Assembly: GCA_948144175.1 (NCBI GenBank)
Contig: CANXME010002486.1
Location: 5,345,001-5,409,000, forward strand
Direction of reading: 5' to 3'
DNA from: Closterium sp. NIES-65
Lineage: Eukaryota; Streptophyta; Zygnematophyceae; Desmidiales; Closteriaceae
Length of the DNA: 64,000 nucleotides
Part shown: piece after piece, positions 4,658-64,000 of the stretch
How positions within the stretch are numbered: the stretch's first letter is position 1
Layout: each line of letters starts with the position of its first letter
Translations under genes and position numbers: made by a program
Notes under the pieces: model-generated
The model's input: only the letters and a program-made list of their open reading frames with translations
Told to the model about the DNA's origin: nothing
Database searches by the model: none

Positions 4658-7600
4658 ATGGTTTCGGCAAAAAGGCCGACGCCCGACACACAGGAGTAAG
4701 TCTCTTTCATGGCTCAAGTGGGACTCGAAGAGCGATTCGTTCGTTTCCGCCAATCTCTGAGTAATAATCGTCGTTTTCCGTCAGACTCCCTGAGCAGTTC
4801 GTTCTTTTCCGTAAAGTTTTGAGTGAAATTCTCGCAATGTTGCTGTCGACGAGTGTTGCTGCGATCTAATAGCAGCGAGAGAGATGCAATCTCTCAACCT
4901 CCGACGTTTGAGGCACCTCATAAATCGTCTAGATTCCCAATTAGTATCACATGTTAGCCCCCCCACTGCTGATTCATGGAATCGAATTGTCGTTCTCGTT
5001 AATGTCTCCATATCTCATCCTGAATGCGACCAGTTCCCGCTTATTGCCACCTATTTTTTTCGAATTGCCACGAGTTTTTTTCTAACTGCTACAACTTTTC
5101 CCTAATAGCCACCGAATTTTCCTAGAAGCTATCAATATTCTCCATGTGCTACAATTTTTTTCCAAAAGCTACCAATGTCCCCTAAGTACTACCAATTTTC
5201 CCCACACACCGATTCACCAGAAATGCCACCATTTTCGCAACGCTGTGGTTTCCACCCTTTCTCGCTACAGGATGGTCTCCATATCACTTATAGACATCAG
5301 GAAGGAGCTACAGTGCCCCATATGCCTTGGTGAGATCTACAGTGCCCCATATGCACATTACTTCTTTTTTTTTTGTCAATTAGGGTTCAGCTTTTCTTCT
5401 GAACTGTTACATTTTTGCATACATTACTATACATATATGTATTCACTGAGTTAATGAAAGGCATCTGCAGCCCACCTGTCCACGTTAGACAACTCATACG
5501 TATACATACGTATAGTTTCTAGGAACTCTGAGTCTATCCTCAGTCGGTGTTACCCCGTGTTTGCGGTTTCTGCATGGCTCGAGTTGCACTCGTGGCGGTC
5601 TCCCATTGCTCGACAGGGATCATCAGGCGGACACGCACAGTGATGGAGTGCTTGCACCGCTTCTGTGGGGACTGCATCGACAAGGCCATCAGGCTCGGGT
5701 GAGATGCACGTCAGGCTCGGGTGCGAAGGACGTCAGGCCCGGGTGAGGTAACGTCAGGTTCGGGTGAAATGGATGTCAGGTTCGGGTGAAATGGATGTCA
5801 GGTTTGGGTGAAATGGATGTCAGGTTCGGGTGAGATGGTAGACAGGGATCATCAGGCGGACGCGCACGGTGATGGAGTGCTTGCACCGTGTCTGTGGGGA
5901 CTGCATCGACAAGGCCATCAGGCTCGGGTGAGAGGGACGTTTGGCTCGGGTGCAGTGGAGGTCAGGTCAGGTTCGGGTGAGATGGACATCAGGCTTGGTT
6001 GTCATGGAGGTCAGGCTCGGGTGAGATAGAGGCCTGGCCCAGCCTAAGAAAGGTCAGGTGAGATGCAGGCTCGGTTGAGATGAGATGCAGGTTTGGGTGT
6101 GATGGAGGTCAGGCTTGGGTGAACTTCAGGCTTAGGTCGGGTTGGTTGGGATTCAGGCTCGGATGCAATGATATCTGAATTGAGATAAGGCAAGGTTAAG
6201 ACTAAGGCGAAGGGTGGGACGAAGGCGAAGGTGAGGTGGAGGAGGGTTGGGGGTGAGGTGGAGGGTCGGGTTAGGTGGAGGATTGGGTGAGGTGGAGAAT
6301 TGGGTGAAGTGGGGTGGAGGTCTGGTTGAGGTGGAGGTTTGGGTGAAGTGGAGGGTTGGGTGAAGTGAGGTTTGGGTGAGGTGGAGGGTTGGGTGAGATG
6401 CAGGAAAGGTTGAGATGGTGTCTTTGTCTTCATCCCTCTGATTCGTTATAGCTCATGTAGAGTTGTTTTTTTTTTGTAACTTTCAATGGACGGTTAAGAA
6501 CCGCCCTTCTCCTCCACCTCCCCCTTCCCTCTCTCCCCCCCCCCCCCCCCCCCTTCCCCCCCCCCCCCGCCCATGCATGCAGCAACAACGAGTGCCCCTC
6601 GTGCCGCGCGCACTGCGCCAGCAGGCAGTCACTGCGCGCCGACCCGCGTCTGCTGACTTGACAAATAGTACCACACTACCCCATCGCTCTCCCCGCCACC
6701 CCACCTCCATGCAGCAACAACGAGTGCCCCTCGTGCCGTGCGCACTGCGCCAGCAGACGGTCACTGCGCGCCGACCCGCGATTTGATGCGCTGGTGGCTG
6801 CTGTGTTCCCCAACAGAGACAGGATCGAGAAGGAGGTGGGTGGAAGGGGTGATGCTAAGAAGCAGGAGGGCTCTGTGAGGGGGTATCTGAGGGGTCGGTT
6901 CAGTGGAATGTTGTAATATCTTGATTAACAGCATAAATTGGCTGGAATGGTAAGTGTGTGATCTCTCCTCGCTTGCTCGTTTCTCTCACTTTCTCCCTCC
7001 CTTGTCTCACGTTGTTCGGGAAACGACACTGCATATAGAAGAGGCCAGGCGCAATGAAGATGCCAGCTTTTGAGTCAACTCAAACCCACTCCCTTTCTAA
7101 AACTCTCTCCCTCTCGTCCTCTCTTCCTCGCTTTCTTGCTCCTGCTCCCTCTCTTGCTCTCCTGATGTTCATTAAAACCGGAGTCCCAAACAGCCCAAAA
7201 CTGCCTCAACCTTCCTAACTTTGGCTGGGGGTTATCTGGTAGATGACAGTCAACTTCGTGAAGTGTGGGAACGATTTTGACGATCCGAAATCACTGTACT
7301 AGCAACGACCACAGCAGTTACGATTTCGCCCAATGAAGTTGCTGTAAATCCGAAATTCGATGCGAAGGGGTTCACGAGTTGCATTCGGGATCTGGTAACC
7401 CTCGCGACAGTATATCACTCAGCGAGCTGTGGCTTCCAGTTTTGGCACTCACCCTAGTTCGCGAGCCAGTTGCGGCTCTTTTCCCAACCAACCTTCCTAA
7501 CTTTGAAACCTATGAGACTCCGGTTTTAAACGTGACACGGCATACAGAGGAGGCCAGGCACAATGAAGAGATCAGATTTCAAGTAAACTCATAAGCCACC

Positions 7601-10600
7601 TCCCTCTCGTCCTCTTTCCGTCACTTACTCTTTCACTCACTCGTCTCCCGTTGTTCAGGAAATGGCATTGCATACAGAGGAGGCCAGGCGCAATGAAGAG
7701 GTGAGCTTACTCCTCTCAATCTTAGTGACCCATCCTTCCCTTACGTTACGTCCCATCCTACTCCCCCCCCCCCCCCCCCCCCAATCTTCCCCCCGTACTT
7801 CCCCATCTCCATCTTCCCCCCGTACTTCCTCCCCCCCATCTTCCCCCGTACTTACCTATCCCCATCTTCCCCCCGTACTTCCCCATCCCCATCTTCCCCC
7901 CGTACTTCCCCATCCCCATCTTCCCCCCGTACTTCCCCATCCCCATCTTCCCCCCGTACTTCCCCATCCCCATCTTCCCCCCGTACTTCCCCATCCCCAT
8001 CTTCCCCCCGTACTTCCCCATCCCCATCTTCCCCCCGTACTTCCACCCCCCCATACTTCCCATCCCCATCTTTCACTTAGTCTCTCCCTTGTTCTCTGCC
8101 TCCCCCTCCCGTGTGCCTTGTTCGTTCCTCTCGTCCCGTTCTTCACAACACTTCAGCTCACTATGATGACCAACGTGTTTCCTCGTTGCGCAAACCCCCT
8201 TAGATAAAGAGGTGGCTTTGAGTCGACTAAGTGACTTTTGAGTCGACTCAAAAGTCTCATCCCGTTCTTCACAACACTTCAGCTCACTATGAGGACCAAT
8301 GTATTTCCTTCTTGCGCAAGCAACTATGAATTGAACGTAGAAATGGCACCACCACCACACCACCATCACCACCACCACCACTCCCTGTCCTTTTCACGTT
8401 CAACTCCCATACATGGCCTGGTAACTCCGCCCTTTCCCTCCCTGTTTCTCATTTTCTTTAGTCGACTCAAAAATTCGACTCACAAAGTAGATTCAAAAGT
8501 CGACTCGAAAGCCATCCACGTCCAGGCAACTCCGCCCTTTCCCTCCCTGTTTTTTTTGTATCAGAGGCGCATTAAAGAGGAAATTTCTCGCCGCCAGGCT
8601 CAAAGTTTCTGAGTCGACTCGAGTGAACTCAAAACCCCTTCCGTGGTTACCTTCCCTAACCTCCTCCCTCCCTCCCTCCCTCCCTCTCTCTCTCCCTCCC
8701 TCCCTTCCTCCCTCTCTCTCCGCATCAGTTCCAAAGGCGCATAAAGGAGATCTCTCGCCGCCAGGCGCAAGTCTTCAACCGCCGTCGCCCCCCCTCCTCC
8801 TCCTCTCTCTCCCTTGCTGCCCCTGATGCTTCTGATGCTGCCAATGGTGGTGATGCTAGCGCTGCTGCTACCAGTAGTGGTGAGGTGAGGTATAATACCA
8901 ACACCACCACCGCCACCACCACCACTGCTGCTGCTTCTGGTAATGACCTTGGTGCTGCTCGTGTTTGCACTGCTATCAAGAAAAGGAAACGAGACGAATC
9001 AATGTTGGGAGGCTCAAGTGGGAGTCAGAGCGTTGGTGGTAAGAGTGGTGTGCCTGGTGGCGAGTGGAGTAAAGAGAGGAGGAGAGTGAGGATGGTGGGG
9101 AGTTGTGGAGAGGAGGGAGAGGAGGAGGAGGAGGAGGAGGAGGAGGAGGAGGAGGAGGAGGAGGAGGAGGAGGAGGAGGAGGAGGAGGGGGAAGAAATTG
9201 GGGGAGGAGTGAAACACGAGAAACAGTCAGTGGAAAGGACAGAGACGGAGGAGGAGGGAGAGGAGGAGGACGAGGAGGGAGAGGAGGAGGGAAGGAAACT
9301 AGAACCTGAATCAGAGGGGGAGGAATGTTTTCAGAAAGAGGAGGAAGAGGAGAAGGAGGAGGAGGACGAGGAGGAGGGGGTGGAGAGGGAGAAGGAGGAG
9401 GATGAGGAGAAAGAGGGGGGAGAGGATGAGGAGATGGAGGAGGAGGAGGTTATAGTGGTCACTGCAGCAGTGCAGAGGAAACAGAAGCGGTCTGCTAAAG
9501 CAGGAGAGCAGAGGGGACAGAAGAGGGGATTCAGAGATGAGAGAGAGGTGAAGGGAGAGAGAGAAGATTTCAGCATGGGAGCTGGCGAGGGTAATATGGG
9601 AAGAAAGAAGGTGAGGCAGGGGGGAGTGAGAGACGCTGGGATGAAGCATGGTCGGGGACAGCATAGGGGGTCAACAGCAGCATCAGCTATAGCAGGAGCA
9701 GCAGCAGCAGCAGGAATAGCAGGAGTAGCAGCAACAGCAGCAGCAGAAGCATCACTAGCTTCAAACGGTCGTCGCATGCACCTGCCGACAACAGCTGAGC
9801 TGGCATCAGCAGTCCACGTGGCACCTGCACTGCCAGCTGGCACCCGGGGCGAAGCAGCAGCTTCGGCCCGAGCAGGAGTAGCAACAGGAGGAGGACAGGC
9901 AGGGAAGAACGTAGAGGCTGGAAGCGGCTTGCAGCCACTGCAGGTGCAGCCCAGGGCGATCCGCTGCCCCCGTGCTGCTCTGCTTGCACGCGCTCTGGTG
10001 GAGGAAAACACGTCTTCCTCCACAATGCCACAGGCTCCTCAACGCTATGGTGATGCTGCTGTGGCGCCTTCACGGGCATTAGTTGGGAGTGTGGCCGGCA
10101 CGTCTGATTTGGCTTGCCGGGATGGTTTGCAAACTCACTGTCTGGCTGGTCAAGGGGGTGTTAACGGGAGCGTTGCTGGTCAAGGGGGTGTTAACGGGAG
10201 CGTTGCTGGTCAAGGGGGTGTTCACGGGAGCGTTGCTGGTGAAGGGGGTGTTAACGGGAGCGTTGCTGGTCAAGGGGGTGTTAACGGGAGCGTTGCTGGT
10301 CAAGAGAACGTTCTTGAGCAGATGATGAGGCTTGTGGGTGGCGGATATGGGGTTTTCAAGTCATGTGGAGGGCTTTTGCGACGCAGGGGTAGCGGTTTTA
10401 TTGGGGAGGATAGAGGGATGTCGCGACAGCAAGAGAGGGAGGTTAGGCAAGGACCAAAGCAGGAGCAAGGCCAGGAGGAGAAGCAGCAGGAGGAGAAGCA
10501 GGCGCAGCAGGAGCTTGGGGAGCAGTATTCGGATTTGGTGCATCTGCAAGTGGTGCTTCAGCAGTGCGGGACAATCGCAGCTAAAAGAAGCTTGTTTCTT

Positions 10601-14245: not shown

Positions 14246-14377
14246 TGTCAGAATATTATAGCTTATGCTTTTCTGTAGGCTATAGTGGGGTATCCCATAG
14301 GGGGTACAACCCAATTAGGGTTAGTACTTGTACCCACTTCACTCATAGTTCATTTCATTCTCGTTCTATTCTTCTCA
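14246..14377 (+). repeat. 5' LTR of Copia A
   Basis: 132 bp, TGTCA to TTCTCA, preceded by target duplication GAACC and followed directly by the primer-binding site. Confidence 0.9.
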
Positions 14378-14504
14378 TGGTATAGAGCAGGTTCCCCTGT
14401 GGGAACTGTGCTTAGGGCCCACCACTTCGAACCTTTTTTTTCCTGCCCGGAGCGCGCTCCGGGCTCTCTCTCTCGATCTGTCGACCTACCCTACGGCTCC
14501 TAGA

Positions 14505-22922: not shown

Positions 22923-22926
22923 TGGT

Positions 22927-29086: not shown

Positions 29087-29413
29087 CTACCTGCCAGCCA
29101 CCACAGGACAGTCTGCCGCCCTGTGCCCAGGTTGCTTGCACAAGAAGCAAACCCCTGAAAACCCTCCTCCCGCACCCCCGCGACCATACGACCCGCCGGG
29201 TGCGCTGCGCGTGCGCTCCAAGGGGGATGGGGTGTAGTATCCATCACTGTCCTCACTCTCCCACGCATCAGAGGTGAAATTGCGGCGGTTGACCAACCCT
29301 CCGCCAGCCGGGCGGCGATCCCGGGAGGAGAATCGGTCGCGATCTCCACCGAACCTGCTGCCGCCGCTACTGCGCCTGTCACCCACATCACCCCAGCTGC
29401 CAGACCTGATATG

Positions 29414-29469
<56 letters not shown>

Positions 29470-32400
29470 AAGAGTAGAGGGAAAAGGACGCGGATATGAG
29501 ACACGTGAGGTATCAATTTGGTTTGGTGGCAAATGCACATGGAGAGGAGTATGAAGAGGTGCAAGCAGGAGAAATGGAACAGGCAAACACAATATTGTGG
29601 CACCCCCTGCCACGGTCGCCCCGCCTCCCTTTCTCCCTGACCCCAGCACACGAGAAGCTGTCCCTTTCAACCGCTTCCCTTATAGCATACTTCAACATAC
29701 CATAAAATCACACCACTTACCTCTCTCTCCTGCCGCCGTCATCGCGCCTGAAACCCCTGTCACGGTCGCCTCCTCTTCCTCCCCTGTCCCTGTCCCCTCC
29801 GCGAGAGTACCTGTCGCCTCCGCCCCTCCCCCTGTCCCCTCCCCTGGCTCCGAACCGCCCGTAATTGTCCCTGTCCCTGCCTCCTCGCACATCATCATCC
29901 ACCAGCGTGGGCAGCTGAGAGGCACATGGGAGGGATGGGCAAGGCAAACAGACAGCACCGCGCAGGGGAGAATGGAACAGAAGCATGAGTTCAGGTGTCC
30001 ACTTCTACCCAGACCACCTGTAGTTGTCCCTGTCCCTGCCGCTGTGAACATCATCATCCACCAATGTGGGAAGAGGAGGAGCAGAGGGCACATAGGATGG
30101 GAGATGGGGATGTAAAAGCATGAGTACAGGTGTCCCCTTCTATCCAAACCGCCCGTAGTTGTCCCTGTCCCTGCCTCCGCCCTGCACATCATCACCCACC
30201 AGCGTGGGCAGCTGAGAGGCACATGGGATGGGCGCAAAAATATGAAGGCAGAGGGAAGGGGGGAAATCAGCCTCGGCATTTTCTAGTGATACATCCCTGT
30301 CACTGCCACCACGAGCGTCAACATGTACCAGCATGGGCAGCTGACGGGGGGACGCACACACCTTGTTTTCTAATATAAGATATCAGACATATTTATTATC
30401 AACATAAGCTATCAACACAAATGCTCTTTAAGACAAAGCAGAACCGCGCACCCACCTGGCGCGGGATGTCAAAGACGTCGCCATTGTCAATCTTAAGGCT
30501 CAGCAACTCCTTTGCCACGTCCTCTGGCAGGTCAAACACGGCTCCCTCCACCTGAAAGGAGGGAGGGCGTGACAGAGAGGGAGAAAGAGGGGATTAGAGA
30601 GAGGGAACGAGGGGGAGAGAGAGCAAGCTTGCGACAAAAATCTTGAAACTGGGCAGATCTTTGACCGCATTGTCTGGCAAGTCAAACACCACTCCCCATC
30701 CCCCGTCCTTCTAAATCCACGCACTCACATCTCGCTCGCCCAGGATCTTGATCTTCCCGACATTGTCCACCGCCCGGCAACACATGACTCCCTCCCCACC
30801 CACTCATGACCCATCCATCCCCATCCCCCAGTCCAGCCAAAACCAGCCCACTCACATCTCGCTCGCCCAGGATCTTGATCTTCCCAACATTATCAGCAGC
30901 GCGGCGGCAGATCTCCCCGAGAGTCCCCATGACCGCGCGTGGGGAGATGAGCGGGCCGTTGCGGCTCTTGGCCGTGCGGATCACGCGCACAGTCACATAC
31001 CCCTCCTCGTGCGTCAGCAGCGACCGGGCGGCGGGCGGCTGGCTGAACCCGCTCAGGTGGGCGATCGCGGCAGCTAGCGCTATCGGGCCGCGCTCCTCGA
31101 GAAGCTTCTCGGCAGTTTCCAGGAAGGACTCCGCGAGTTCAGGGTGGACCCGGTTGATGAGGGCAGCGGATTGGTTGGCCGAGGCTTGAAGGACATCGTC
31201 GGGGTGGGGCGGGGAGGCCTTCTCAAACTTGCAGCCGATGTCCCGCTCTATCATGCGCAGGGACCGGAGCTGGTTGGGGGAAGGAAGGGGGAAGAGGAGG
31301 GAGAGAGGGGCATGGGAAGATGAGTGCGGCGGACTGGTTGGCAGAGGCTTGGAGCACGTCGTCCGGGTGGGGCGGGGAGGCCTTCTCAAACTTGCGACCT
31401 CCAAACTTGCATGTCCACAGGTGTGGTGCATAACATCTAATGTAGTCACATCCGTGTACATGAGGAGGATGGTGCTCCCGGTCTTGCCCGCTCGCCCCGT
31501 TCGGTGCACCAAGGCTTATGAGTCCACTAAACTCCTTACATACACAGTCCCACCTTTCACAATCACACAATCAACCTCACCTGCGAGTCCGTATACATGA
31601 GGATGGTGCAACTTTACAAGCACACGCCATAGTCACATCGGTTAGCATCACACACCTGCGAGTCAGTGTACATGAGGATGGTGCATCCAGTCTTGCCAGC
31701 TCGCCCCGTTCGCCCCGACCGATGCACAAACGTCTCAGGGTCGTTGGGGATCTCGTAGTGAATCACCTGGCCGGGAAGAAAGCACAGGGGGAATGAACGG
31801 GTGTTGGAGCGTGGGTGGGGGGGAGTGAGTGGAAGTCTAAGTTCACTGATGCACAGATGTCTCAAGGTCGTTGGAAATCTCATAGGCAGGGAGGGGGGAC
31901 GAGGGAGGGGGGAGGAGGGAGCGGGAGAACACAAATGACAACAATTCCAAGCCGCAGACACTTATGTGCGGCTACACAGGTATGGAGGGGGGAGGAGGGA
32001 GCGGGAGAACAAGAATGAAAACAGTTCCAAGCCACATGGAGCTTTGTCCACATATTATTTTTGGTGGCTTGGACACTTAATATCCACATGGAGCTTTGTC
32101 CTTATAAATGGAGTTCTGTCCAGAGTATCACCTCCTTCCTTGAAGCTCACTAACCATGGTTTCTTCCTCTAGGAACCTCTACGGTTCATAGACAAGCAAG
32201 CACTGTCCTTTGTCAGGTCAGAAAACCGCCCACACTCACGAGGTCAACAGTAGGGACATCGGGCCCTCTGGCAGCCACATCAGTCGCCACGAGCACCACG
32301 AGCATGAGGCCGTCTCTGAACGCCTGCAGCGTGCACTCCCTCTGCTGCTGGGGGATGTCCCAGTGCAGCGCCTCACAGCCCACCGAGCGACCCAGTGCAT

Positions 32401-38024: not shown

Positions 38025-38395
38025 TGGAGTCACCAAATCAGCTTGTCATGGCTGCTCTGCAGCTTGAATGCCTTTTTCAGCCCATCCCCAGCACTCTATT
38101 GAACCCCCCACAGCAAAAATGTCCCTTTTCCAACTTCTGCGATCCCAATCCCCCCAACAGCTCAACCAATCAGCTTGTCATGGCTGCTTTGCAAATTGAA
38201 CGTCTTTTTCAGCCCCCTAGCCAGCCTCCCCAGGGCCCCCGCCCAGCCCAGCTCCGATCGCGCCGCCAGCTGGCCGCCCGCCATTGGGCATGGACGTGTT
38301 GCGGGTGAACAACCTTCCTGCCGCCTGTGCCGGAATGCCCACGTATACCCGGTCCATCAACCGCAACCCCTGCATGCCAAAACCCTCGACCCCCA
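38025..38395 (-). repeat. Downstream copies of the 3' end of the neighbouring gene
   Basis: 38155-38395 repeats the end of the gene at 38442-41617 (RVYVGIPAQAAGRLFTRN, SMPNGGRPAGGA, then a diverged tail); 38025-38090 is a shorter copy of the last bases around the stop. Both lie just beyond the stop at 38442. Confidence 0.85.
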
Positions 38396-38441: not shown

Positions 38442-41400
38442 TCACCCAATCAGTTTATCATGACTGCTCTGCAGGTTAAACGTCTTTTTTAGCCCCCGAG
38501 CCAGCCTTCCAAGCCCCCCGCCAATCCCAGCTCCGACCGCACCGCCAGCTGGCCTTCCCCCATTGGGCATGGACATGTTGCGGGTGAACAACCTGCCTGC
38601 CGCCTGTGCCGGCATGCCCACGTACACACGGTCTATGAGCCGCGACCCCTGCATGCCAAACCCGGACCCTGACCCAGCAGTGGAGAACGAGCGAGCGTGA
38701 TCGATTGGTGGCTGGTTCAGCCTACTCCTAGGAGTCGTGGCACCTGCTGCTGCTCCCCCTCCTCCTCCTGCTCCTGCTGCCCCCCCCCCTGCCCCCGCCC
38801 CTCCAACTCCTCCTCCTACTCCACCAGCACCGCCACCAGCAGCACCGCCGCAAGACCCATCCCCTCCGCCGCCCTTCCCTTCTTTCACAGCAGCGGCAGC
38901 AGCAGCCATGGCCTGGGCCTTAGCCGGCCCCACCAGCACCCCTACTGACGCCAGCTGAGACGCAATCTCCTCCTCCCAAGTCAGCCCAGACGGGGCCAAA
39001 TTCCCCACCTGTCCCCGGATCTTCTCCCCTTCCCACGTCCCCCCACCGTCCTTCCCTCCCGAACGCCCCACCTGTACAGACCAAGCAGCTCTGGCTCGGG
39101 CTATCAGTCCGCTCTGGGCCGGGTTTCCCTCGCCTCCCCCTCCCTCTCCCCCTCCCGCTGCGGCTGCGTCATCAGGGGAAACCTTAGCACCAGACATGGC
39201 AGGGCTCTTTCGTCCAGACTGTTGTCCCGAGGGAACCCGGTTGCTGCTCCCGCTGTTCCCACTAGCTCCAGTCGGGCCCTGGCCGAACCCAGGCGTCTGC
39301 CTGGGATGCGGGCTGGTGAAGATGATCGGCGCAGCAACTGCCTGAACGATCTTCTTGGGGATGTTGAATACGAAATCCTCCCCGTCGTCGTCGTCGCCCG
39401 TCCCGTTGTTCCCAGACCCCGGCTTGCGAATGGTGAACACGAAATCGTCGTCGTTTTCATCGATTTCCTCCAGAGCGCTTTTGAGCCGGGCTGTGCCGCT
39501 GCCCTCGGCTGCCATTACAAAATCCGGAGCCTGATCTTCCTTGGTCAGAAACTTCTTAGGGGCACCTGGATGGAGGATCAGGATGAGTCGAGCTGGGACC
39601 ACTCCTCGGGAGTTCACCACCCATGATTTCATGGTCGTTTCGAGGGTTTCGCGGGCAGCTTCGGGCAGGTCGGAAGGTTTTGTGGGGGGGGAGGGGGTGG
39701 AGGCGGAGGAGAGGAAGAGGTTTCGGAGGGCTGTGAGTTTGCTGCGCGCTTCTTTGCGAGTGAAGCACTCGTATGCGGCTATGGAGAATATGTAACCTTG
39801 GTAGATGTGGAATAGGAACATCACTTGATCAAAGCCCTGCAGACGTAGAAAAAAAAAGGGAAACGGGGGGGGGGGGAGGGGTTGCAGGGGCAAGTGCAAT
39901 GTGAAACACTGGTACGTTGCTATGGAGAATATGTATCCCTTGGTAGACGTGGAATAGGAACATCACTTGATCAAAGCCCTGCAGACATGGAGAGGAAGGT
40001 GTTTAGGAGGAAGGAGGGAAGGTGGAAGAGGAGTGGAGGGGGGTAGGGGGGGTGGGGAAGGAGAAGGGGGGATGAGGGGAAGGGTCAAGTGCAGAAAGAG
40101 TTTTAGAAAGAACGAGCAAACTCGTATGGGGCTTTGGAGAATATGTATTCTTGGTATTTGTGAAAGAGGAACACCACTTGGTCAAAGCCCTGCTGTCATG
40201 GAGAGGACAGTGGTTGGGGGGAAGGAGGGAGGGGGAGAGGAGTGGAGGGGGGAGGGGGGAAGAGTGCGGGGGGCAAGTGTCAAAAGAGTTTTAGGAAGAA
40301 TATTGCACTCATGTGCAGCGATGGAGAATATGCATCCTTGGTGGATGTGGAATGGGAACATCACTTGATCAAAGCCCTGCAGACATGGAAGGGAAGGTGG
40401 TCGGTAGGAAGGGAGGAATGGGGAGCAGGGGTAGAGGGGGGGAAGACGGGTGGGAGGAACGGGGAAATGGGAGAGAGGGGTGAAGGGCGGGCGGAGAGGG
40501 GTGGGAGGAAGGGGGAAAAGGGGGAGAGGGGTGGAGGTTGGGGAGAAGGGAATGGGAAAAGGGGAAGGGGTTCGGAATTGCAGACTTTTATAATCCCCAA
40601 GTCTGTAGCCGTGTGTGGTTCCGCAAGATAAGCAGGAAGGTATGCATGATTAGGGTGTTATTGAGAATTCTCAAAAACAACCTGCAGCATCAAGGTACGC
40701 ATGATTAGGGTGTTTTTGAGAATTAAAAACACCCCGCAGCATCAAGGTACGCATGATTAGGGTGTTTTTGAGAATTCTCAAAAACACCCTGCAGCATCAA
40801 GGTACGCATGATTAGGGTGTTTTTGAGAATTCTCAAAAACACCCTGCAGCATTAAGGTACGCATGATTAGGGTGTTTTGAGAATTCTCAAAAACACCCTG
40901 CAGCATCAAGGTACGCATGATTAGGGTGTTTTTGAGAATTCTCAAAAACACCCTGCAGCATCAAGGTACGCATGATTAGGGTGTTTTTGAGAATTCTCAA
41001 AAACGCCCTGCAGCATCAAGGTACGCATGATTAGGGTGTTTTTTAGAATTCTGAAAAACACCCTGCAGCATCAAGGTACGCATGATTAGGGTGTTTTTGA
41101 GAATTCTCAAAAACACCCTGCAGCATCAAGGTACGCATGATTAGGTGGTACATAAACAACTCTGACAAAAAATAAAGAAGTAACTTATGTGTACAGAGGA
41201 GGAATATAGAGACGTATAAACGCTTCAATGCAAACTAAACAGGCAACAGAAATCAAGGACCAGCGGACGGGATATGCATTTTGAGAAGAGGGTAGCAAAA
41301 AGCAAGGACCAGCCCGACTGGGTTGAAACGCGAGGATGAAGGTGGGGAAGAGGGTAATTACAGGAGCTGCCTATGAGAATTCGAAACGAATGGAATCAGA

Positions 41401-51132: not shown

Positions 51133-51267
51133 TGTTAGAGTAGGTAGGTAGGTGAAGTTGACTATCGAGGGAGTTGGGTACAAGGATGAGAACCCTAAGG
51201 GGTTGTACACTACATTGGCTATCCCACTAAAGCCTAAACCTAATTATAAATCATATATAGTTTGACA
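51133..51267 (-). repeat. 5' LTR of fossil C
   Basis: 135 bp between the primer-site complement and the right 121-bp repeat; TGTCAAAC to CTAACA on the minus strand. Confidence 0.85.
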
Positions 51268-51388
51268 GCCCGAGCATTTTGTGGGCCAAGAACAGCAATG
51301 GAATGCTTTCCTAATAACTCCTAGGTGGTGTCCATAGCAGCATGTCAACATTGGTCATTTGCACAGCACAACTTATTTTGCTGTGATA
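51268..51388. repeat. 121-bp direct repeat, right of fossil C
   Basis: The partner of 43225-43345. It starts at the first base after the right LTR. Confidence 0.9.
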
Positions 51389-52073: not shown

Positions 52074-54689
52074 CTACCAGGAGACGTCGGGTGCGGGGGA
52101 GACCACCTTCAAGTCCTCATACTCGCTGTGGGCGGATTCGGCAAAGCATTAGAGTAGAGGAGAGAGATGTGGTTTGAGATAAGATGCCATGGAAATGCGA
52201 AGCCCATGAACTACGCATATGCTGATGCCACGAGAGAAGTGAACGAGAATGGCGTTTTTAACACCAGTGAGTCATGATAAATGTAAACAAAAGCGCATTT
52301 TGTGTATATCCTTAGTGTTACTCACCCGATGTAGGGTTCGTTCCAGCCACGCCAGTCGCCCGACCATCGCCCGTCGAGCACATAGCTCGCATCCCAGATG
52401 GATGCATACGTGTACATGGGTTTCACTGGGTACGGCTCTCCATCCTTGCGCTTCGCCACGCGCACCACCTTTCCATCAATCTGCCATCTGGAGTGCGGGG
52501 AGAATGGAAAGCAGCGGATGAAGGCATTAAAGAGTCAGGCCAAGTTTACCTCAGAATTTTATTTTCACGAATCCGTTTGTTCTGTTGCTTTTGATTCACC
52601 TCGTAAGTCCACTTACATGATTTGATTCTCGTTCCAGAACATGGCGTATTCGTGGAAGTCCGACGAGCAGTCGAACCCTAACGGAATCAAAACCTCCCGC
52701 CCGCCCTTGCCGTCCACGTAGTAGTTTGTCTGCACCTGCCACTTGTCCTTTCCCAGGAACTCGAAATCGATCTCGTCCTGATCCCGGCTGCCTTCTAACG
52801 AGGATAACTGCAAGGCGCGAGAGTGACGTCAGCGGGGGGAGGTGGGGGGGGGGGGGGGGGGGGGGGGGGAAGGATTGGAGCAGGGGGGGTTGGATGGCGA
52901 ACCTTGAGAACTTCGAAAACGCGTCAACGTAGCGCCAAAAGGAAAGAAGATTGGAAGGGGCATCGAGGGGAATCAGCATTGCAGTCTCACTTGCGAGTCT
53001 GCAGACCGCCTTATAACGAGTATAACGGGAGAGCCAAAGAAAGAACGTACATAATAGGACTGCACCAGGCCGCTGATGTCCCCTTTGGGGCACTTGATCC
53101 GCGCGCTGAAGATGCCCGACGGGTACTGCACGTCTGTGCGCACGCGGCTTCCGCCTGCGGGGAAGAAGGAGGGGGAGGCCAGGGGAAGGGGGAGGGGGTG
53201 AGAGGCGGAACGCAGATTGAAAAGTGGCGATCCGCGCGCTGAAAAAGCCCGACGGGGTACTGCACGTCCGAGCGCATGCGGCTTCCGCCAGTGGTGGGGG
53301 GTAAAGGGGAGGCTGAGCGGCGGAGGGGCAAAGAAACTCAGAACTCGAGGCGGCAAAAACGACAAGCTGCCTGACGGGTACTGCACGTCTGAGCACACGC
53401 GTAGGGGAAAAGGCCAGGGGGATGGGGAGGAGGTAGGGAAACTTGGGGGGACGGAGGAAGAGGGGTGGAAGGTGGACACTTGGAATAAAGACTAGCGAGC
53501 ACAACAATCCTTTTCGGAACATTCCCCTTTGTATTCCCCCCTGTTTCCAGTTGACCGCTTCACCATACCCAACGCTAGCCCCACAGAGCCCTTGACGATT
53601 GCCGAGTCGACTCGTAAGTCACCTCATTCCCGTCGTCTCGTAAGCCATGTCATCATAGCCAACGGTATTACCACAGACCCCACACAGTACCCACGACTCA
53701 CGGCAAGGGGTTGACGTGTCCACCCGAATCTTCACATTGTTGCTGTCGACTTCCGAGAATTTCTCGCAGTAGTCGATCTCCAGAGGATCCAACGGCTCTG
53801 CTTCGCCCTTGGTGTCGATCGGGTCTACCTGGCGATCTTTCAGCCATTGGATCCGCTGCCAGTTGGCGTTGTCGTTTTTCTTCAGGTCCGGCATCAACAG
53901 GTTTGCTGCTGTCCGCGCCGCCTCCGCGAGCTCTGCCACCGACGAGTGTGGATCCGCGTTAAGGCACTCCTCGACAAGCGACCGCGCAAACGCGACTTTC
54001 CAGCCCGCTTTAATCAGCGCGCCTTTCTCGGCCAACTCAATCGCCTTGGGAATTTGAAAGTGCGCCCGAACCAGCAACTTCCCGCAGGAACTTGTCTCCT
54101 CCGCGCGCCTCGACGCTGTACCGAGAGTCGCCTCCATATAAGACAGCTGAAGGAGAACGCTTTGGGCGCGCGCCATGCCTTTAACGGGACCGTTGCTGCC
54201 GGGGCCAGTGGGCAGCGTGACAATCTCGCCGATTCCGTCACCAGAGTTGTTTTCGCCATCGTAACCTTTGACTTGGGCGGAATCGAGAACGACACCCGAG
54301 CCTCGCAAAGGGTGGTGACGTCCTTTCGTGCCGGTTCGGTGGCCCTTTTTCTTGCCGTTTCTGCTCTTGTGGCCCCCCTTTTTCCGCGTCGAGTTTCCGC
54401 CGTCCGCGGTGAAGTTTGCGAGGGCGGATTGGATCTGCGCCTCGATTTGCTGCTTCTCGGTTTTGGAGATGACTTTAAGAAGGTCCTTTTGCGTCATGAC
54501 AGGAACTTGGTCGGGCGGAGTGACCTGCACGTGCGCGTCGCAAGGCGCGACGATGAGCGACGCGAGGAAGACTGCCAGGAGCGGGAGGACTATCAGGAAG
54601 GTAGCATGCCTGCTACTAGGGCGGGGCGAGTTTGTTTGAGGGACGAACGACATTGTTTGAGATACGAGTGAGCCTGTGCGAGGACTCAT
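52074..54689 (-). CDS. GH16 xyloglucan endotransglucosylase/hydrolase-like enzyme with N-terminal extension
   Basis: Five phase-consistent exons: 54689-53702, 53154-53051, 52807-52617, 52487-52326 and 52125-52074; 498 aa. A hydrophobic segment FLIVLPLLAVFLASLIVAPC near the N-terminus is a signal peptide or anchor. A Lys/Arg-rich extension of about 270 aa follows. The GH16 part reads SRVRTDVQYPSGIFSARIKC, GDISGLVQSYYLSSLEG, then DQDEIDFEFLGKDKW, where DEIDFEFLG is the XTH catalytic motif (nucleophile and acid/base Glu), QTNYYVDGKGGRE and IDGKVVRVAKRKDGEPYP. XTHs cut and rejoin xyloglucan-type wall glucans outside the cell. The protein ends soon after SGDWRGWNEPYIG, without the usual Cys-containing XET C-terminal region. 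The start may also be the Met at 54653. The region beyond 53702 reads on in frame, so splicing there is inferred. Confidence 0.82.
52838..52872 (+). repeat. Poly-G tract in XTH intron
   Basis: An almost pure G run; on the sense strand it is a C run just before the acceptor of the exon carrying the catalytic motif. Confidence 0.85.
53220..53402 (-). repeat. Upstream copies of the 5' part of XTH exon 2
   Basis: 53220-53295 repeats GGSRMRSDVQYPVG with a CCACTGGCGG-type junction; 53355-53402 repeats the VCSDVQYPSG part. Both lie in the intron upstream of exon 2 (53051-53154). Confidence 0.82.
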
Positions 54690-57924: not shown

Positions 57925-57995
<71 letters not shown>

Positions 57996-59282: not shown

Positions 59283-60550
59283 ACGTGAGTTGCGGGAAGA
59301 AAAACCTTGGAAAATTTCTAATACGCGCAGCGGGGAAAAAAAATTGTTACGTCGTTCCGGAGAAGGAGCGACGCACGAGTGTTGCGTTACCACCAGAAGG
59401 AACTAGTCGTTCCTGTCCTGCGTTCAAAGATTTCTGAGTCGCCTAACAGGTCAGCTTATACCGAACATATCAATAAGAATCTTCGCTGCTAAATATTTCC
59501 AATAGCCCTGCGAACACCTTAGTCTGGACGAGAGTGGTAGATTGTTAGGGAAGCGATAGGACCGAGGAGTTCTTCTAATGCTACTACTACTATGGCTATT
59601 GGGACGCACGCCTGTGTACATAGCATGTTCTAACTTGCAGCATAACGACAGAGCACGAGCACTGTGAGAAGCGAAGAACAAAACTACTTCGATTCAGTAA
59701 GTAACCAGCAGGCATAATTGAGGGCTCAGTAGCCAGTTGTCAACCGTATTATGGGTTCAATATGCACCTGTGATGCTTCAAAGCGTTTCCTGACACCTCG
59801 GTAACTTGAACCTATGCCAGCCAGCGGCAGACGTGACGCACGTTTCAAGATTCGCGAATCTCGCCAGTTTCTCTCCAGGCTTATGGTCACAGCTGCTTTT
59901 ACGAGCCTGGCGTCGCCCCTGTCTCTGTGCACGTCGCGCCTATTTCTTCTGACAAACCACCATGAATGCAAGTCGAAAAACCAACGAGAAACGAGATTTG
60001 AGGAATCCTCTAGCTTATACTGCTAACTGGGACTGCTATCTTCCCCCATTTGAGGCAGGGGCGAATTTGGGTAATGTTGAAAATGTCGGCACCGCGACTC
60101 GTAAAGTGGGCGGATTTTGAAATCTGGAGGCTTCTTCTCCCCCCTGCACCACTCTTCGGGGGACCCGAACGGTCCGCTTAGTCAGCAAATAGGGCGCATA
60201 CGTGGCGCTGGTTGATGTCGGAACGTGACGGCCGCCGCGTTTCCCGCCCTTTCAACGACGATGGCGAAACGGGGCTCCAACGTACCTGTTCTCCGCTTAG
60301 CTGACGCAATTCCAAACACTTATATTCAGTGGTCGTGTAAGCCATTGAAAACCCTTCTAATAGCTAGCTGAAATTCATTAGCACTAAACAGGGAACCCCC
60401 TCAAGATTATTTGCAACGGTTATGATCAGGAATACGAGGAAGAATGAAGGGAAATAAACATCTCGTCAGCCCTAGGTCGTACCTATTGCTTAGATAGGAT
60501 ACTAATGCCTAAGATGCAATTGCACTGCACCCTACCATTAGAAAGGATTT
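59283..60550. other. Intergenic region between expansin and GT34 genes
   Basis: The promoter side of the expansin and 3' flank of the GT34 gene. No gene, repeat or RNA was recognised. Confidence 0.45.
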
Positions 60551-63500
60551 TTAGAAATCCAACTGTCTATTTTTCAGCGGATGCGAGTCGAACTCCGACG
60601 CCTTGTACGTAGTAAAGTTGATCTTCACAACTTGGAATGTATCCAAATGAAGGTGCTCATAACCAAACTTGCGTAACACTTGGTTGTCAGCAAAGTTGAA
60701 CGCCCTGTGATTCACAGGCAAGGAAAAAACGGTGAAGGAAAAAGAACACAAACATAGGACAAACCAAGCAAGCACTGGATCTGCAATAAACGTTTTATCC
60801 TATTGTTTCCTTGCCATTTTGTCTCCATCTTTGTACCACACCGCTCTCTCCTGCTACTCTGATTGACCCAAATTGCTGCAGGCTTGTAGTCTCAACAGTT
60901 ACCACTCAGCTTCGAATCAACCAGAGTCCTGAAGTGTCCTGACAACTTGCAGTGCGACCCTTCTCCAATCACCCACCTCTCCATGTCCACCCCCTAGCTC
61001 GCACCCTCCTCCATGCACTCACCTCTCCATGTTCTCCACACATCGCTGTGTCTCATACTCTATCTGGCCAGTCTTGCTGCACGACTGGTACCCCGCAAAA
61101 CTAGCATCTCACTAGTGCTCTCACCCATCCATGCACCCACCTCTCCATGTTCTCCACGCATCGCTGTGTCTCCTCGTACTCAATCTGCCCGATCTTGCCG
61201 CACGGCTTGCACCCCACAAAGTGGGTAATCAGCGGCCACCGGTGGTCTCCGTAACCCGGGTGGTACTTGTCCATCAGCTCCTCGTAGCTGTCAGCGGGTT
61301 GGGGGGGGGTTGGCGTGGGCGAGGTAGGAATAACAAGAGAAGGTGAGCATATCATTCACCAGAGGGCACCGGTGGTCGCCATACCCTGGGTGGTGCTTGT
61401 CCATCAGCTCCTCGTTGCTGTGGACATGAGGTGAAGGGGAAGGGGACGGAGGGTGGAAGGGGGGGGAAGAGGCAGAGGGAGAGGGAGCAAGGTATATGAG
61501 AGGCCAATGGTGGTCACCGTACCCCGGGTGGTGCTTGTCCATCAGCTCCTCGTAACTGTCAGGTGTGGAGGGAGGAGAACGTGTACTAGGGGAAGCAGGG
61601 GGCAAGACACACGGTGAGCAGTGGGGGGTAAGATTGTAATGAGCAGCCACCGGTGGTCACCATACCCCGGGTGGTGCTTGTCCATCAGCTCCTCGTAACT
61701 GTCAGGTGTGGAGGGAGGAGAACGTGTACAAGGGGAAGCAGGGGGCAAGACACACGGTGAGCAGTGGGGGGTAAGATTGTAATGAGCAGCCACCGGTGGT
61801 CACCATACCCCGGGTGGTGCTTGTCCATCAGCTCCTCGTAGCTGTGGTAATAAGGGGGGTTGTGGGGGTGGGAAGAGGGAGAGAGAGGGAACAGGGTAAG
61901 AGCACAATCCCCATCCCTTTCGTCAGCACATCCTTTGTAAGGCTCACTGAGGGGCGATGGTGGGCCGGACGGAGAACAGCACGAAGGAGCTCGAGCTCGA
62001 GCTCGAGCTCTCCAATTAGATGTGCTTGGCTCACACCAAGTGATAGTGGGACCTAGGCAAGGGAACATGTGCGGCAGCATGCGACTCACTGCGGGGCGAT
62101 GGTGGGGCAGAAGGAGTGCAGCATGAAGGAGCATCCAGGTGAATGCCCTTGGCGCACATGCTCATACACACTCCAAGCCCTTCGTGTCAGCACACTCTTG
62201 TTTCAACTGTTTTCAACTGTTTTCAACTGTTGTGACTCACTGTGGCGTGATGGTGGGCCAGAAGGAGTGCAGCATGAACGAGCTCTCCAGGTGAATGCCC
62301 TTGGCGTACTTCTCCGGGTGGTAAGCCATCATCCACACTATGGCGCTCTGATCATCTCCCTCAAACATGGGGCGGGTCTGCACGCGGGGCGGGGTGGTGG
62401 GAGAGAGGAGAGAGCGACAGGGGAAGGAGAGGGGTAAGAGCAGCAGAGAGCGGGAGGAGGAGACTGTAAGCCATCATCCACACTATCGCACTCCTGTGTT
62501 CTCCAGGTAGATGCCCTTGGCGTATTTCTCCGGGTGGCAAGCCATCATCCACACTATGGCGCTCTGATCGTCTCCCTAAAACATGGGGCGGGTCTGCAGG
62601 TGGGGGGGGGGGACGGAGAAAGGATAGGAGAGGAGGGCGACAGGGGGGAGAGAGGGAGAAGAGCAGGCGGGAGAGGACGAGACTGAGCAGCAGAGAGCAG
62701 CAGAGAGCAGGAGGTGAATGCAGCGGTACGAGATGCCTCACATCATACTACTGTTTGAGCGTCTGAGATCTTCAATAAATCACTTAAAAGGAGTGGCAGC
62801 ATCGACGGCTGATGTAATGCTTACAGAGAGCTCTTTGAACTGCGTCACGCCTGCTGCGTCCCTCATCGCCCCCTTCACCCCAAACTGCTGTTTAGAATGC
62901 AACTACGAGTGCATACCCGGTCAGTTGGTGGCTTACAGAGAGCTCTTTGAACAGCTTCACGCCTGCTGCATCCCTAATTGCCCCCTTCAGTAAGTGCTTA
63001 CGACGAGGTCGCACCAGAGAGTGAGAGTGAGGGAGAGAGGTTGGAATATGCAGGGAGAGGGGTCTTACAGAGAGCTCCTTGAACAGCTTCACGCCTGCTG
63101 CGTCCCTCATCGGCCCCTTCACTCCGAACTGCGCCAAGTCCTCCATGAAGTCAAGCGACCACTGGGGGGGAGGAAGAAGAGGGGAATGGGAGAAATGGGG
63201 AGTGAGAGGGATTCAGAGGTCCTGGGATCAGGAGCAAGAATAGGCAAGCCCCTTCACTCCGAACTGCGCCAAGTCCAGTCAAGCGACCACTGGGGGATGA
63301 GGGGGGAGTTCGAGAGAAGAAGGGGGTTTAAAAAGGTATTCAGAGGCACTGCAGTACGGAGCAAGGGAAGGCAGGCACCTTCACTCCGAACTGCGCCAAG
63401 TCCTCCATGAAGCCAAGCGACCACTGCGGGGGAGGAAGAGGGGAATGGGAGAAATGGGGGGTGAGAGGGATTCAGAGGTCCTGGGATCAGGAGCAAGAAT

Positions 63501-64000
63501 AGGCAAGCCCCTTCACTCCGAACTGCGCCATGAAGTCAGGCGACCACTGCGGGAGAGAGCAAGGGGAGGGGGGGCAAGGGGATGCGAAATGGAGGTGTGG
63601 AGGAAGAATCAGAACAAGGGAAGGCAGGTTCCTTTACGCCAAACTACGCCAATTCCTCCCTGAAATTCAACAACTTCACAGTGCAGGGAGTTTATGAGAA
63701 TTTTCAAAAACTCCCTGCAATTCATCCCTGAAATCCAGTGACTTAACAATGGGAGAGAGAGAAGAGGGGGGAAGCAAGGAGATGCGAGAGGAAGGCATGA
63801 GAGGAGGAATTGGAGCAAGCGAAGGCACACCCCCTTCACTCCGGACTGAGCCAACAGAAGACTCAGACTTGTAGGCGAAGAGATGGCCACAGGGCCGTGT
63901 GTATACGCGGGTATGGAGCTCAACAGGAGGCGGGGAGGGTGCTGGTGACATTGGAGTCGACTCAAAAGACACCTCGTTTTGAGTCGACTCAAAAGACACC
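60551..64000 (-). CDS. GT34 xyloglucan xylosyltransferase-like enzyme, 5' part beyond the window
   Basis: Four C-terminal exons are inferred: 63161-63069, 62377-62241, 61287-61141 and 60704-60551, all phase-consistent; earlier exons must lie right of 63161 or outside the window. The joined protein reads WSLDFMEDLAQFGVKGPMRD, GVKLFKELS, TRPMFEGDDQSAIVWMMAYH, IHLESSFMLHSFWPTITPH, YEELMDKYHPGYGDHRWPLI, THFVGCKPCGKIG, QRCVENMERAFNFADNQVLR, KFGYEHLHL. This matches GT34 enzymes (DDQSA, GDHRWP, THFVGCKPCG, FNFADNQ), which add xylose to the xyloglucan backbone or galactose to galactomannan in the Golgi. The DXD site would be upstream. Every intron carries partial copies of adjacent exons. Confidence 0.85.
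61020..61066 (-). repeat. Downstream copy of the 3' end of the GT34 GDHRWP exon
   Basis: It repeats ETQRCVENMER with its donor (GTGAGTG), downstream of exon 61141-61287. Confidence 0.8.
61357..61848 (-). repeat. Four upstream copies of the 5' part of the GT34 GDHRWP exon
   Basis: Copies ending near 61422, 61556, 61700 and 61845 each begin with a CAG acceptor and encode YEELMDKHHPGYGDHRW or close variants. The copies at about 61556 and 61700 belong to a 143-bp tandem duplication with almost identical flanks. Confidence 0.9.
61912..62125 (-). repeat. Two downstream copies of the 3' end of the GT34 DDQSA exon
   Basis: 61912-61978 and 62080-62150 repeat the SSFMLHSFWPTI portion with GTGAG(C/T) donors, downstream of exon 62241-62377. 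An AGCTCG microsatellite is at 61988-62010. Confidence 0.78.
62465..62600 (-). repeat. Upstream copies of the 5' part of the GT34 DDQSA exon
   Basis: 62500-62600 begins at an acceptor CTGCAG and repeats TRPMF, GDDQSAIVWMMA and PEKYAKGIYL; a short further piece is at 62469-62495. Confidence 0.8.
62812..62995 (-). repeat. Two downstream copies of the 3' end of the GT34 WSLDF exon
   Basis: 62812-62880 and 62935-62995 repeat RDAAGVKLFKELS with GTAAGC donors, downstream of exon 63069-63161. Confidence 0.82.
63245..63685 (-). repeat. Upstream copies of the 5' part of the GT34 WSLDF exon
   Basis: Copies near 63245-63295, 63376-63432, 63507-63556 and 63626-63680 repeat WSLDFMEDLAQFGVKG to varying extent; several keep a CGCAG or CCCAG acceptor. 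They are embedded in repeated GGGGAGGAAG intron sequence. Confidence 0.78.
63684..63722. repeat. Single palindrome related to the 40.6-kb array
   Basis: CAGGGAGTTTATGAGAA, then TTTTCAAAAACTCCCTG, forms an imperfect hairpin with the same GAGAATT.TCA core and a CCCTGCA shoulder as the array units at 40641-41150. Confidence 0.6.
63952..64000. repeat. Two GAGTCGACTC palindromes at the right edge
   Basis: GAGTCGACTCAAAAGACACC occurs twice in tandem, 25 bp apart. Confidence 0.85.

What the first reader, a model, noticed from the sequence alone, without database searches (positions are those of the whole stretch)
5617..63680. Exon-end echoes: partial exon copies in introns obey a positional rule in five host genes
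In the RING1-like, RH3-like, unknown (38442-41617), XTH-like and GT34 genes, introns contain about 30 diverged partial exon copies. Copies of an exon's 5' part, often with its AG acceptor, lie upstream of the real exon; copies of its 3' part, often with its GT donor, lie downstream. Tandem duplication across a splice junction followed by loss of use of the outer copy would give exactly this. What is striking is the density and repetition, and that splice sites are kept. I do not know this being described as a genome-wide habit. It could seed alternative splicing, decoy splice sites or intron growth.
Basis: partly seen in the sequence, partly recalled or inferred. Interest (0 to 1): 0.9.

Follow-up and report, generated by a model that had tools for sequence, protein, structure and literature searches.

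The report
Exon-end echoes in Closterium introns
In this green alga the introns of several ordinary genes carry partial copies of the neighbouring exon, almost always the exon's start on its upstream side and its end on its downstream side, which looks like repeated duplication across splice junctions that the cell tolerates by splicing at the innermost copy.

Summary
Confirmed and extended. The window lies on a 5,533,378-bp contig of Closterium sp. NIES-65. With gene models for the five genes, 45 same-strand exon copies lie in their own introns and flanks, against 2 inverted, 3 in other genes' introns and 0.2 per shuffle. 42 of 43 partial copies obey the rule (2 more are whole exons). In 20 further 10-kb stretches of the contig 37 of 37 filtered copies obey, in RPS10, a histidine kinase and a PPR gene among others; 9 of the 11 echo-bearing segments lie near the window. 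Splice AG/GT are kept about as often as nearby exon bases. Spacing is 120-152 bp in 28 of 45 units; intron length tracks copy number (rho 0.82). Junction-spanning tandem duplication explains the geometry; head-to-tail units survive in 21 of 67 adjacent pairs. Elsewhere homology mostly fades near the junction, even in young pairs, so duplication plus neutral decay is not enough; later exon-copy exchange is inferred. New variant of internal gene duplication.

The parts
5272..7700 (+). RING1-like gene, modelled exons 5272-5329, 5617-5698, 6715-6835, 7659-7700 (probably continues downstream)
   Evidence: open frame across 4 exons; Pfam zf-C3HC4_2 2.5e-12
29087..36344 (-). RH3-like DEAD-box helicase gene, 10 exons
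   Evidence: model identical to NIES-65 protein P0001
38442..41617 (-). gene of unknown function, modelled exons 41471-41617 and 38442-39836
   Evidence: no Pfam; 8 homologues listed, all Closterium
52074..54653 (-). XTH-like (GH16) gene, 5 modelled exons
   Evidence: Pfam GH16 1.1e-42
60551..63161 (-). GT34 gene, 3' part, exons 63069-63161, 62241-62377, 61141-61287, 60551-60704
   Evidence: Pfam GT34 8.9e-10
5841..5966 (+). RING1 E2 whole-exon copy, downstream
   Evidence: 90% over 126 nt
5984..6058 (+). RING1 E2 suffix echo, downstream (15 exonic nt)
   Evidence: 73%
6557..6648 (+). RING1 E3 prefix echo with AG, upstream
   Evidence: 90%
6982..7069 (+). RING1 E4 whole-exon copy, upstream
   Evidence: 81%
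7540..7578 (+). RING1 E4 near-whole copy (nt 12-42), upstream; the one exception to the rule
   Evidence: 90%
35356..35419 (-). RH3 E2 prefix echo, upstream
   Evidence: 78%
33994..34109 (-). RH3 E3 suffix echo with GT, downstream
   Evidence: 87%
33901..33963 (-). RH3 E3 suffix echo, downstream
   Evidence: 87%
33755..33828 (-). RH3 E3 internal piece (nt 225-298), downstream
   Evidence: 91%
33161..33280 (-). RH3 E4 suffix echo with GT, downstream
   Evidence: 88%
33518..33574 (-). RH3 E4 prefix echo with AG, upstream
   Evidence: 98%
33661..33715 (-). RH3 E4 prefix echo, upstream
   Evidence: 82%
32379..32589 (-). RH3 E5 suffix echo with GT, downstream
   Evidence: 81%
32234..32398 (-). RH3 E5 suffix echo with GT, downstream; a NIES-53 copy shares its lead sequence
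   Evidence: 88%
32935..33006 (-). RH3 E5 prefix echo with AG, upstream
   Evidence: 86%
31451..31503 (-). RH3 E6 suffix-side echo, downstream
   Evidence: 85%
31845..31885 (-). RH3 E6 prefix-side echo, upstream
   Evidence: 83%
30693..30778 (-). RH3 E7 suffix echo with GT, downstream
   Evidence: 85%
31330..31395 (-). RH3 E7 prefix-side echo, upstream
   Evidence: 91%
30673..30696 (-). RH3 E8 prefix-side echo, upstream
   Evidence: 88% over 24 nt
30143..30231 (-). RH3 E9 prefix echo with AG, upstream
   Evidence: 91%
30013..30073 (-). RH3 E9 prefix echo, upstream
   Evidence: 82%
30294..30344 (-). RH3 E9 prefix echo with AG, upstream
   Evidence: 80%
38161..38381 (-). unknown gene last-exon suffix echo, past the stop codon
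   Evidence: 86% over 221 nt
38030..38083 (-). unknown gene last-exon suffix echo, past the stop codon
   Evidence: 83%
39901..39986 (-). unknown gene E2 prefix echo with AG, upstream
   Evidence: 91%
40120..40193 (-). unknown gene E2 prefix echo with AG, upstream
   Evidence: 86%
40305..40390 (-). unknown gene E2 prefix echo with AG, upstream
   Evidence: 88%
53229..53289 (-). XTH E2 prefix echo, upstream; partly read as exon in NIES-65 model P0132
   Evidence: 90%
53364..53401 (-). XTH E2 prefix-side echo, upstream; read as exon in P0132
   Evidence: 89%
63248..63296 (-). GT34 E1 prefix echo with AG, upstream
   Evidence: 88%
63374..63480 (-). GT34 E1 prefix echo with AG and 60 nt of intron, upstream
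   Evidence: 94%
63507..63581 (-). GT34 E1 prefix echo with AG, upstream
   Evidence: 76%
63831..63854 (-). GT34 E1 prefix-side echo, upstream
   Evidence: 92% over 24 nt
62932..62989 (-). GT34 E1 suffix echo with GTAAG, downstream
   Evidence: 91%
62820..62888 (-). GT34 E1 suffix echo with GTAAG, downstream
   Evidence: 91%
62500..62656 (-). GT34 E2 prefix echo with AG, upstream
   Evidence: 84%
62466..62493 (-). GT34 E2 prefix-side echo, upstream
   Evidence: 93% over 28 nt
62080..62157 (-). GT34 E2 suffix echo with GT, downstream
   Evidence: 89%
61943..61992 (-). GT34 E2 suffix echo with GT, downstream
   Evidence: 82%
61360..61421 (-). GT34 E3 prefix echo with AG, upstream
   Evidence: 87%
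61491..61562 (-). GT34 E3 prefix echo with AG, upstream
   Evidence: 88%; in a 143-nt tandem array
61636..61705 (-). GT34 E3 prefix echo with AG, upstream
   Evidence: 90%; in a 143-nt tandem array
61779..61845 (-). GT34 E3 prefix echo with AG, upstream
   Evidence: 91%; in a 143-nt tandem array
60997..61080 (-). GT34 E3 suffix echo with GT, downstream
   Evidence: 83%

Best explanation
The echoes are the outer copies left by recurrent short tandem duplications (typical spacing about 130 bp) that straddled a splice junction or gene end in Closterium. A duplication of [intron end + exon start] leaves the spare copy upstream; one of [exon end + intron start] leaves it downstream; so the rule is geometry plus selection for an intact protein. 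The duplication is nearly harmless if the spliceosome uses the innermost acceptor and donor, the pair that bounds the shortest exon, as under exon definition (inferred). The spare copy stays in the intron, decays, lengthens the intron and offers a similar sequence for further misaligned exchange, so arrays grow and turn over. Shown: the copies, the rule, same-strand geometry, full-unit homology in a minority of pairs, constraint on the real exon with relaxed copies, intron length rising with copy number, recurrence in other genes of the contig and in gene models of other strains. Inferred: break repair or slippage as the start, exon definition, and later exon-copy exchange (possibly between diverged strains' haplotypes) to explain why homology mostly fades near the junction.
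For: 45 direct vs 2 inverted copies, shuffled 0.2 per pass; 23 of 24 exon-end families obey, binomial p 3e-6; 37 of 37 filtered copies in 200 kb of other sequence obey, 0 inverted. Homology at least 0.9 of the spacing in 21 of 67 adjacent repeat pairs; filler above all other-intron controls in 15 of 44 window units. Polarised codon-position changes, summed over echo pairs so that one change can count more than once: real exon 7:0:21, younger echo 11:17:21 of about 365 sites each. Intron length vs echo number rho 0.82; 14 echo-bearing introns mean 694 bp, 6 others 282. Many unused echo acceptors look usable: 16 of 17 AG sites reach the weakest real score against 7.8% of intronic AGs. Strain evidence: NIES-53, NIES-64, NIES-65 and Naga37s-1 models contain peptides that map to window echoes or their exons. 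6 of 10 informative site pairs in the GT34 E3 family are incompatible with one tree, as exchange would give.
Against: Intron flanks of copies are far less alike than the exon parts: 0.60 vs 0.80 identity, control 0.54; 14 of 43 above control. Neutral tandem decay simulated at exon identity 0.80-0.82 predicts 0.68-0.74. RPS10: a 132-nt exon prefix copy is 99% alike but about 155 nt of filler finds no match. Mismatches are 6.4/5.6/20.3% by codon position, more third-position bias than a neutral echo plus constrained exon should give; sibling echoes 6:3:15. 11 of 17 echo AG sites and 7 of 11 echo GT sites score below their own real site, so site strength, not only position, may guide the choice. 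Exon definition and the repair origin were not tested. The tree-conflict count rests on one family; the four other families with at least three copies had at most one informative site.
Confidence: 0.72

Rival explanations
1. Plain tandem duplication across junctions followed only by neutral decay, with introns that simply turn over very fast by indels in pyrimidine tracts (the first half of the best explanation without the second process).
For: Geometry; homology over at least 0.9 of the spacing in 21 of 67 adjacent pairs; younger echoes close to neutral; at the highest indel rate tried the simulated flank identity falls to 0.60-0.68 when exon identity is 0.76-0.80.
Against: 6 of 7 adjacent repeat pairs at 92% identity or more have homology over less than 75% of the spacing (not all of these were checked to be exon copies, and the seventh is the 55-bp array); donor-side fillers of GT34 E1, not pyrimidine tracts, show no homology, though one of the two passes the 40-nt test; third-position excess.
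Confidence: 0.25
2. Echoes arise by unequal exchange between diverged haplotypes, so the copy and its filler are alien from birth: exon parts similar with mostly synonymous differences, introns already diverged (a special form of the best explanation's second process).
For: Third-position bias; loss of homology 6-12 nt beyond the acceptor on average; RPS10; one strain of the complex shows hybrid origin with recombination between sequences of different origin (PMC10407611, section 8).
Against: RH3 E4 inner prefix echo is 98% identical with no third-position change in 18 codons while its filler is only weakly alike; no second haplotype could be read here.
Confidence: 0.2
3. Echoes are kept by selection as alternative or decoy splice units.
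For: 16 of 17 echo AG and 7 of 11 echo GT sites reach the weakest real site's score; several public gene models read echoes as exons; third-position bias.
Against: AG/GT kept no better than neighbouring exon bases; 11 of 45 echoes carry a frameshift or in-frame stop; 43 of 45 are partial exons; younger echoes near neutral.
Confidence: 0.08
4. Repair-mediated capture of nearby DNA that inserts exon fragments at random nearby places.
For: Short local duplications with spacers are known from vertebrates (PMC2671141); many echoes have unrelated filler.
Against: Random insertion gives both strands and both sides; inverted 2 of 47 in the five genes and 0 of 37 in the filtered sample, with no wrong-side copies there.
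Confidence: 0.04
5. Assembly artefact.
For: The assembly is from noisy long reads (PMC10407611, passages).
Against: 44 of 45 copies are 73-94% identical to the exon, so not duplicates of reads; echo peptides recur in gene models of NIES-64, NIES-53 and Naga37s-1, of which NIES-53 was sequenced on another platform.
Confidence: 0.01

Closest known systems
Tandem genomic duplication / internal gene duplication model of intron change (Rogers; Gao and Lynch 2009, not readable here, known through passages of PMC3443670 and the introduction of PMC4974935)
   Same: short segment duplicated in tandem, sometimes across an intron-exon boundary, with part of a former exon ending inside an intron
   Different: in what I read, discussed as single events that create a new intron; here introns are lengthened by arrays of copies at many junctions, at ~130-bp spacing, with homology often fading at the junction
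Potato RdRp case (PMC4974935, abstract and introduction)
   Same: duplication crosses an intron-exon boundary and reuses inherited splice signals
   Different: one event, creates a new intron with a donor from the previously exonic part of the first copy
Repair-mediated local duplications (Pace et al. 2009, PMC2671141, abstract and passages) and small tandem duplications at breaks (PMC8355091, abstract and introduction)
   Same: short local duplications, able to copy exons and splice sites
   Different: not tied to exon ends; the human set has 4 partial exon/intron donors among 824 events, and tandem copies were removed from it
Introners (PMC9860276, abstract start in a search listing)
   Same: act on introns genome-wide
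   Different: elements that copy themselves into many genes; here the repeated sequence is the neighbouring host exon itself

Membership tests
Internal (tandem genomic) duplication | direct-orientation adjacent copies of a local segment | tested here: met
   45 direct, 2 inverted; 37 direct, 0 inverted
Internal (tandem genomic) duplication | homology spans the whole repeated unit | tested here: inconclusive
   15 of 44 units, 21 of 67 adjacent pairs; not in 6 of 7 pairs at 92% or more
Internal (tandem genomic) duplication | creation of a new intron | not tested
   intron positions of relatives were not available
Repair-mediated duplication by capture (SDSA) | copies inserted nearby irrespective of strand and side | tested here: not met
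Introner-type element | same sequence family inserted in introns of unrelated genes | tested here: not met
   3 cross-gene hits among the five genes, one low-complexity, two of 21 and 28 nt
Functional alternative exon | transcript evidence of use | not testable with these tools
   no RNA reads; public models only

The most novel reading that the evidence does not exclude
Closterium runs a genome-wide concerted system: exon ends seed arrays of echoes at a preferred ~130-bp spacing, and misaligned exchange between exons and echoes, often between diverged haplotypes, keeps refreshing the exon parts while fillers run away. Introns grow by exon echoes, and the spliceosome must pick the innermost of several usable sites, making every such gene a natural test of exon definition.
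Probability: 0.35. Interest if true: 0.82.

Novelty: new variant of a known kind. Interest (0 to 1): 0.7.

Why it matters
It gives a visible record of how introns lengthen: 21.5% of intron sequence in the five genes is exon-like echo. It offers many natural constructs with duplicated splice sites for asking how splice pairs are chosen, and it warns that public Closterium gene models, including the NIES-65 XTH model P0132, appear to take echoes for exons.

Tried and rejected
Special retention of splice sites: rejected, about equal to neighbouring exon dinucleotides. Copies still under full coding constraint: not supported for the younger echoes, though a third-position excess stays unexplained. 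Outward ageing of copies: no clear gradient by eye in the identities. Detecting echo-bearing Closterium proteins by blastp against themselves failed even on a known case; a split-alignment scan of 25 Closterium proteins flagged P0002 and P0012 for echo repeats, P0009 for a simple repeat and P0135 for a domain duplication, and 2 of 65 sampled other proteins. Five stretches from other contigs gave 11 kept coding-like segments (6 dropped), none with copies; I did not check whether they hold host genes. In the 20-stretch sample, before filtering (E<1e-3, 25 nt), tallies were prefix-up 62, suffix-down 85, prefix-down 19, suffix-up 11, inverted 13; 23 of 82 segments were then dropped for internal repeats (12 of them had copies, among them L003:553-924 and a PPR segment, L011:8622-8855) and the cut raised to E<1e-5, 30 nt, giving 17, 20, 0, 0, 0. 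Pfam labels cover 30 of the 82 segments. Nine paper searches: three returned nothing, the other lists were mostly capped, and no listed title or abstract start described a genome-wide habit of this kind; the 'exon duplication' hit in PMC11096116 is in its reference list. Most subscription journals are not held.
Full report
What the window is. The window is G000:C2188:5345001-5409000 on a contig of 5,533,378 bases. The public protein P0001 of Closterium sp. NIES-65 lies on a contig of that same length and equals, over 934 aa, the RH3 protein I spliced by hand from 10 exons. So the RH3 exon boundaries agree with the public model and the species is settled. The other models (RING-finger gene, unknown gene, XTH, GT34) read in frame through all modelled exons and carry the expected Pfam domains, except the unknown gene, which has none; the 8 homologues listed for it are all from Closterium.

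The observation. I searched each of 25 exons, with 60 nt of flank, against its own gene region with all exons masked. This gave 45 same-strand copies, 2 inverted ones (low-complexity), 3 matches to introns of the other genes and 0.2 per shuffled pass. Upstream copies are 26 prefixes, 1 whole exon and 1 suffix; downstream copies are 16 suffixes and 1 whole exon; by exon end, 23 of 24 families obey (p 3e-6). The exception is a 31-nt copy of the 42-nt RING1 exon 4. The rule also holds at the 3' end of the unknown gene, where copies lie past the stop codon; there the stop codon overlaps a donor-like GGTGAGGG, and the NIES-64 model P0123 runs past it into the echo, so this is not a clean case without a splice site. 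Six of 20 introns carry no echo.

Not only these five genes. I took 20 stretches of 10 kb from the same contig, 10 beside the window and 10 at half-megabase steps, without looking at them first. A codon log-odds scan trained on the five genes marked 82 coding-like segments; 23 with internal repeats were dropped; of 59 kept, 11 have local copies, 37 in all: 17 prefix-upstream, 20 suffix-downstream, none wrong-sided or inverted. The unfiltered tallies, which include low-complexity arrays, are less clean (see Tried and rejected). Nine of the 11 segments are from stretches beside the window (L001, L003, L008, L009, L010), where the GT34 gene itself continues into L001; two are from one distant stretch (L011, at 1.0 Mb); the other nine distant stretches gave none. 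Pfam puts a host domain on 7 of the 11: GT34 (below its cut-off), ribosomal protein S10, three segments of a PAS/HisKA/HATPase histidine kinase, and two PPR segments (below their cut-offs); three had no hit and one (L009:9282-9899) was not scanned. Two host segments, with DDA1 and chorismate-binding domains, have no copies. Of 8 segments with retrotransposon domains one was dropped for internal repeats and none of the other 7 has copies. Five stretches from other contigs showed none, but I did not establish that they hold host genes. So the habit is shown for one contig and for public gene models of other strains, not yet for the whole genome.

Other strains. Public gene models contain echo peptides: NIES-53 RH3 has three E5-suffix copies where exon 6 should be, NIES-64 RH3 reads E3 and E4 echoes, a Naga37s-1 RH3 model carries a weaker E9-like match (45% identity, E 1.5e-7), and the NIES-65 XTH model itself reads sequence of both E2 echoes. 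One NIES-53 copy shares intron-derived lead residues with the outer E5 echo of the window, yet at the protein level is closer to the real exon (96%) than to that echo (81%). Some echoes are thus probably older than the strain split, and an assembly fault is unlikely. [quoted passage not shown] I saw the abstract, passages and sections 8 and 22).

Anatomy. Adjacent copies are spaced at a median of 138 bp, 28 of 45 within 120-152; pooled with six sample stretches the 67 adjacent repeat pairs show the same mode. Introns with echoes average 694 bp, those without 282, and length follows echo number (rho 0.82, 20 introns); 21.5% of intron bases are exon-like echo. AG is kept in 17 of 24 and GT in 11 of 14 testable copies, like neighbouring exon dinucleotides. 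By a small weight matrix, 16 of 17 echo AG sites reach the weakest real site and 6 of 17 their own real site; for GT 7 of 11 and 4 of 11.

Evolution of the copies. Where an older echo serves as outgroup, changes by codon position are 7:0:21 on the real exon and 11:17:21 on the younger echo (summed over pairs, so not independent): the exon is constrained, the echo close to neutral. But pooled mismatches are 6.4, 5.6 and 20.3%, and differences between sibling echoes are 6:3:15, a stronger third-position bias than neutral decay gives. 11 of 45 echoes have a frameshift or stop.

Mechanism. Direct orientation, side rule and homology over at least 0.9 of the spacing in 21 of 67 adjacent pairs show tandem duplication across junctions for at least a part. 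Yet on average homology is lost within about 6-12 nt of the acceptor: over 40 nt the exon side is 0.80 identical, the intron side 0.60, unrelated introns 0.54 (43 units), while a neutral simulation gives 0.68-0.74 at the same exon identity, and 0.60 only at the highest indel rate with lower exon identity. In RPS10 a 132-nt exon prefix copy is 99% identical while about 155 nt of filler finds no match. Six of seven adjacent repeat pairs at 92% identity or more have homology over less than 75% of their spacing (not all were checked to be exon copies). I therefore infer a second process: exchange between exon and echo, within the array or between diverged haplotypes, that refreshes the exon part and changes the filler. 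Support is thin but present: in the GT34 E3 family 6 of 10 informative site pairs conflict, and the two window E5 echoes share residues absent from the NIES-53 copies. The first two rivals listed are forms of this account with less or more of the second process, so the odds given are not exclusive.

Why it is tolerated. In my models the used site is the innermost of several; for RH3 the public protein agrees and for XTH the NIES-54 protein does, while the NIES-65 XTH model P0132 does not. Choosing the shortest exon is what exon definition does; choosing the shortest intron would take the outermost echo. This is an inference from general knowledge of splicing, and a testable one; stronger real sites may also play a part.

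Known or new. Tandem genomic duplication is an accepted route of intron change (PMC3443670, passages; PMC4974935, abstract and introduction; Gao and Lynch 2009 could not be read). Small tandem duplications can arise at breaks with overhangs (PMC8355091, abstract and introduction), and local repair duplications can copy splice sites (PMC2671141, abstract and passages). In nine paper searches I did not find a genome in which exon ends are echoed at many junctions with this rule and spacing. I file it as a new variant of a known kind.

Noticed in passing
22497-28559: Copia-type LTR retrotransposon with a 1750-aa open frame (RVT_2, integrase, gag) and end repeats 100% identical (rounded) over 426 nt, suggesting a recent insertion.
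   Followed up: partly
14246-20349 and 43224-51395: Two diverged copia-like copies in opposite orientation, 68-80% alike over several kb.
   Followed up: no
40637-41145 and 63682-63719: An array of about nine 55-bp units containing a palindrome in the unknown gene's intron; a 35-nt palindrome 89% alike lies upstream of the GT34 exons.
   Followed up: no
55668-59402: Single long ORF of 1245 aa with expansin domains and in-frame simple repeats; the self-comparison shows no local copies of it outside the ORF, a useful contrast.
   Followed up: partly
8236-8253, 63977-63994, and the histidine kinase locus in L003: The palindrome TTTTGAGTCGACTCAAAA recurs in introns and spacers, with related 13-bp repeats at 8460-8510.
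   Followed up: no
52074-54653: The Closterium XTH carries an N-terminal stretch of about 300 aa without a Pfam domain, found also in NIES-54 and NIES-68 proteins.
   Followed up: no
all intron echoes: Preferred spacing of 120-152 bp between copies is unexplained.
   Followed up: partly
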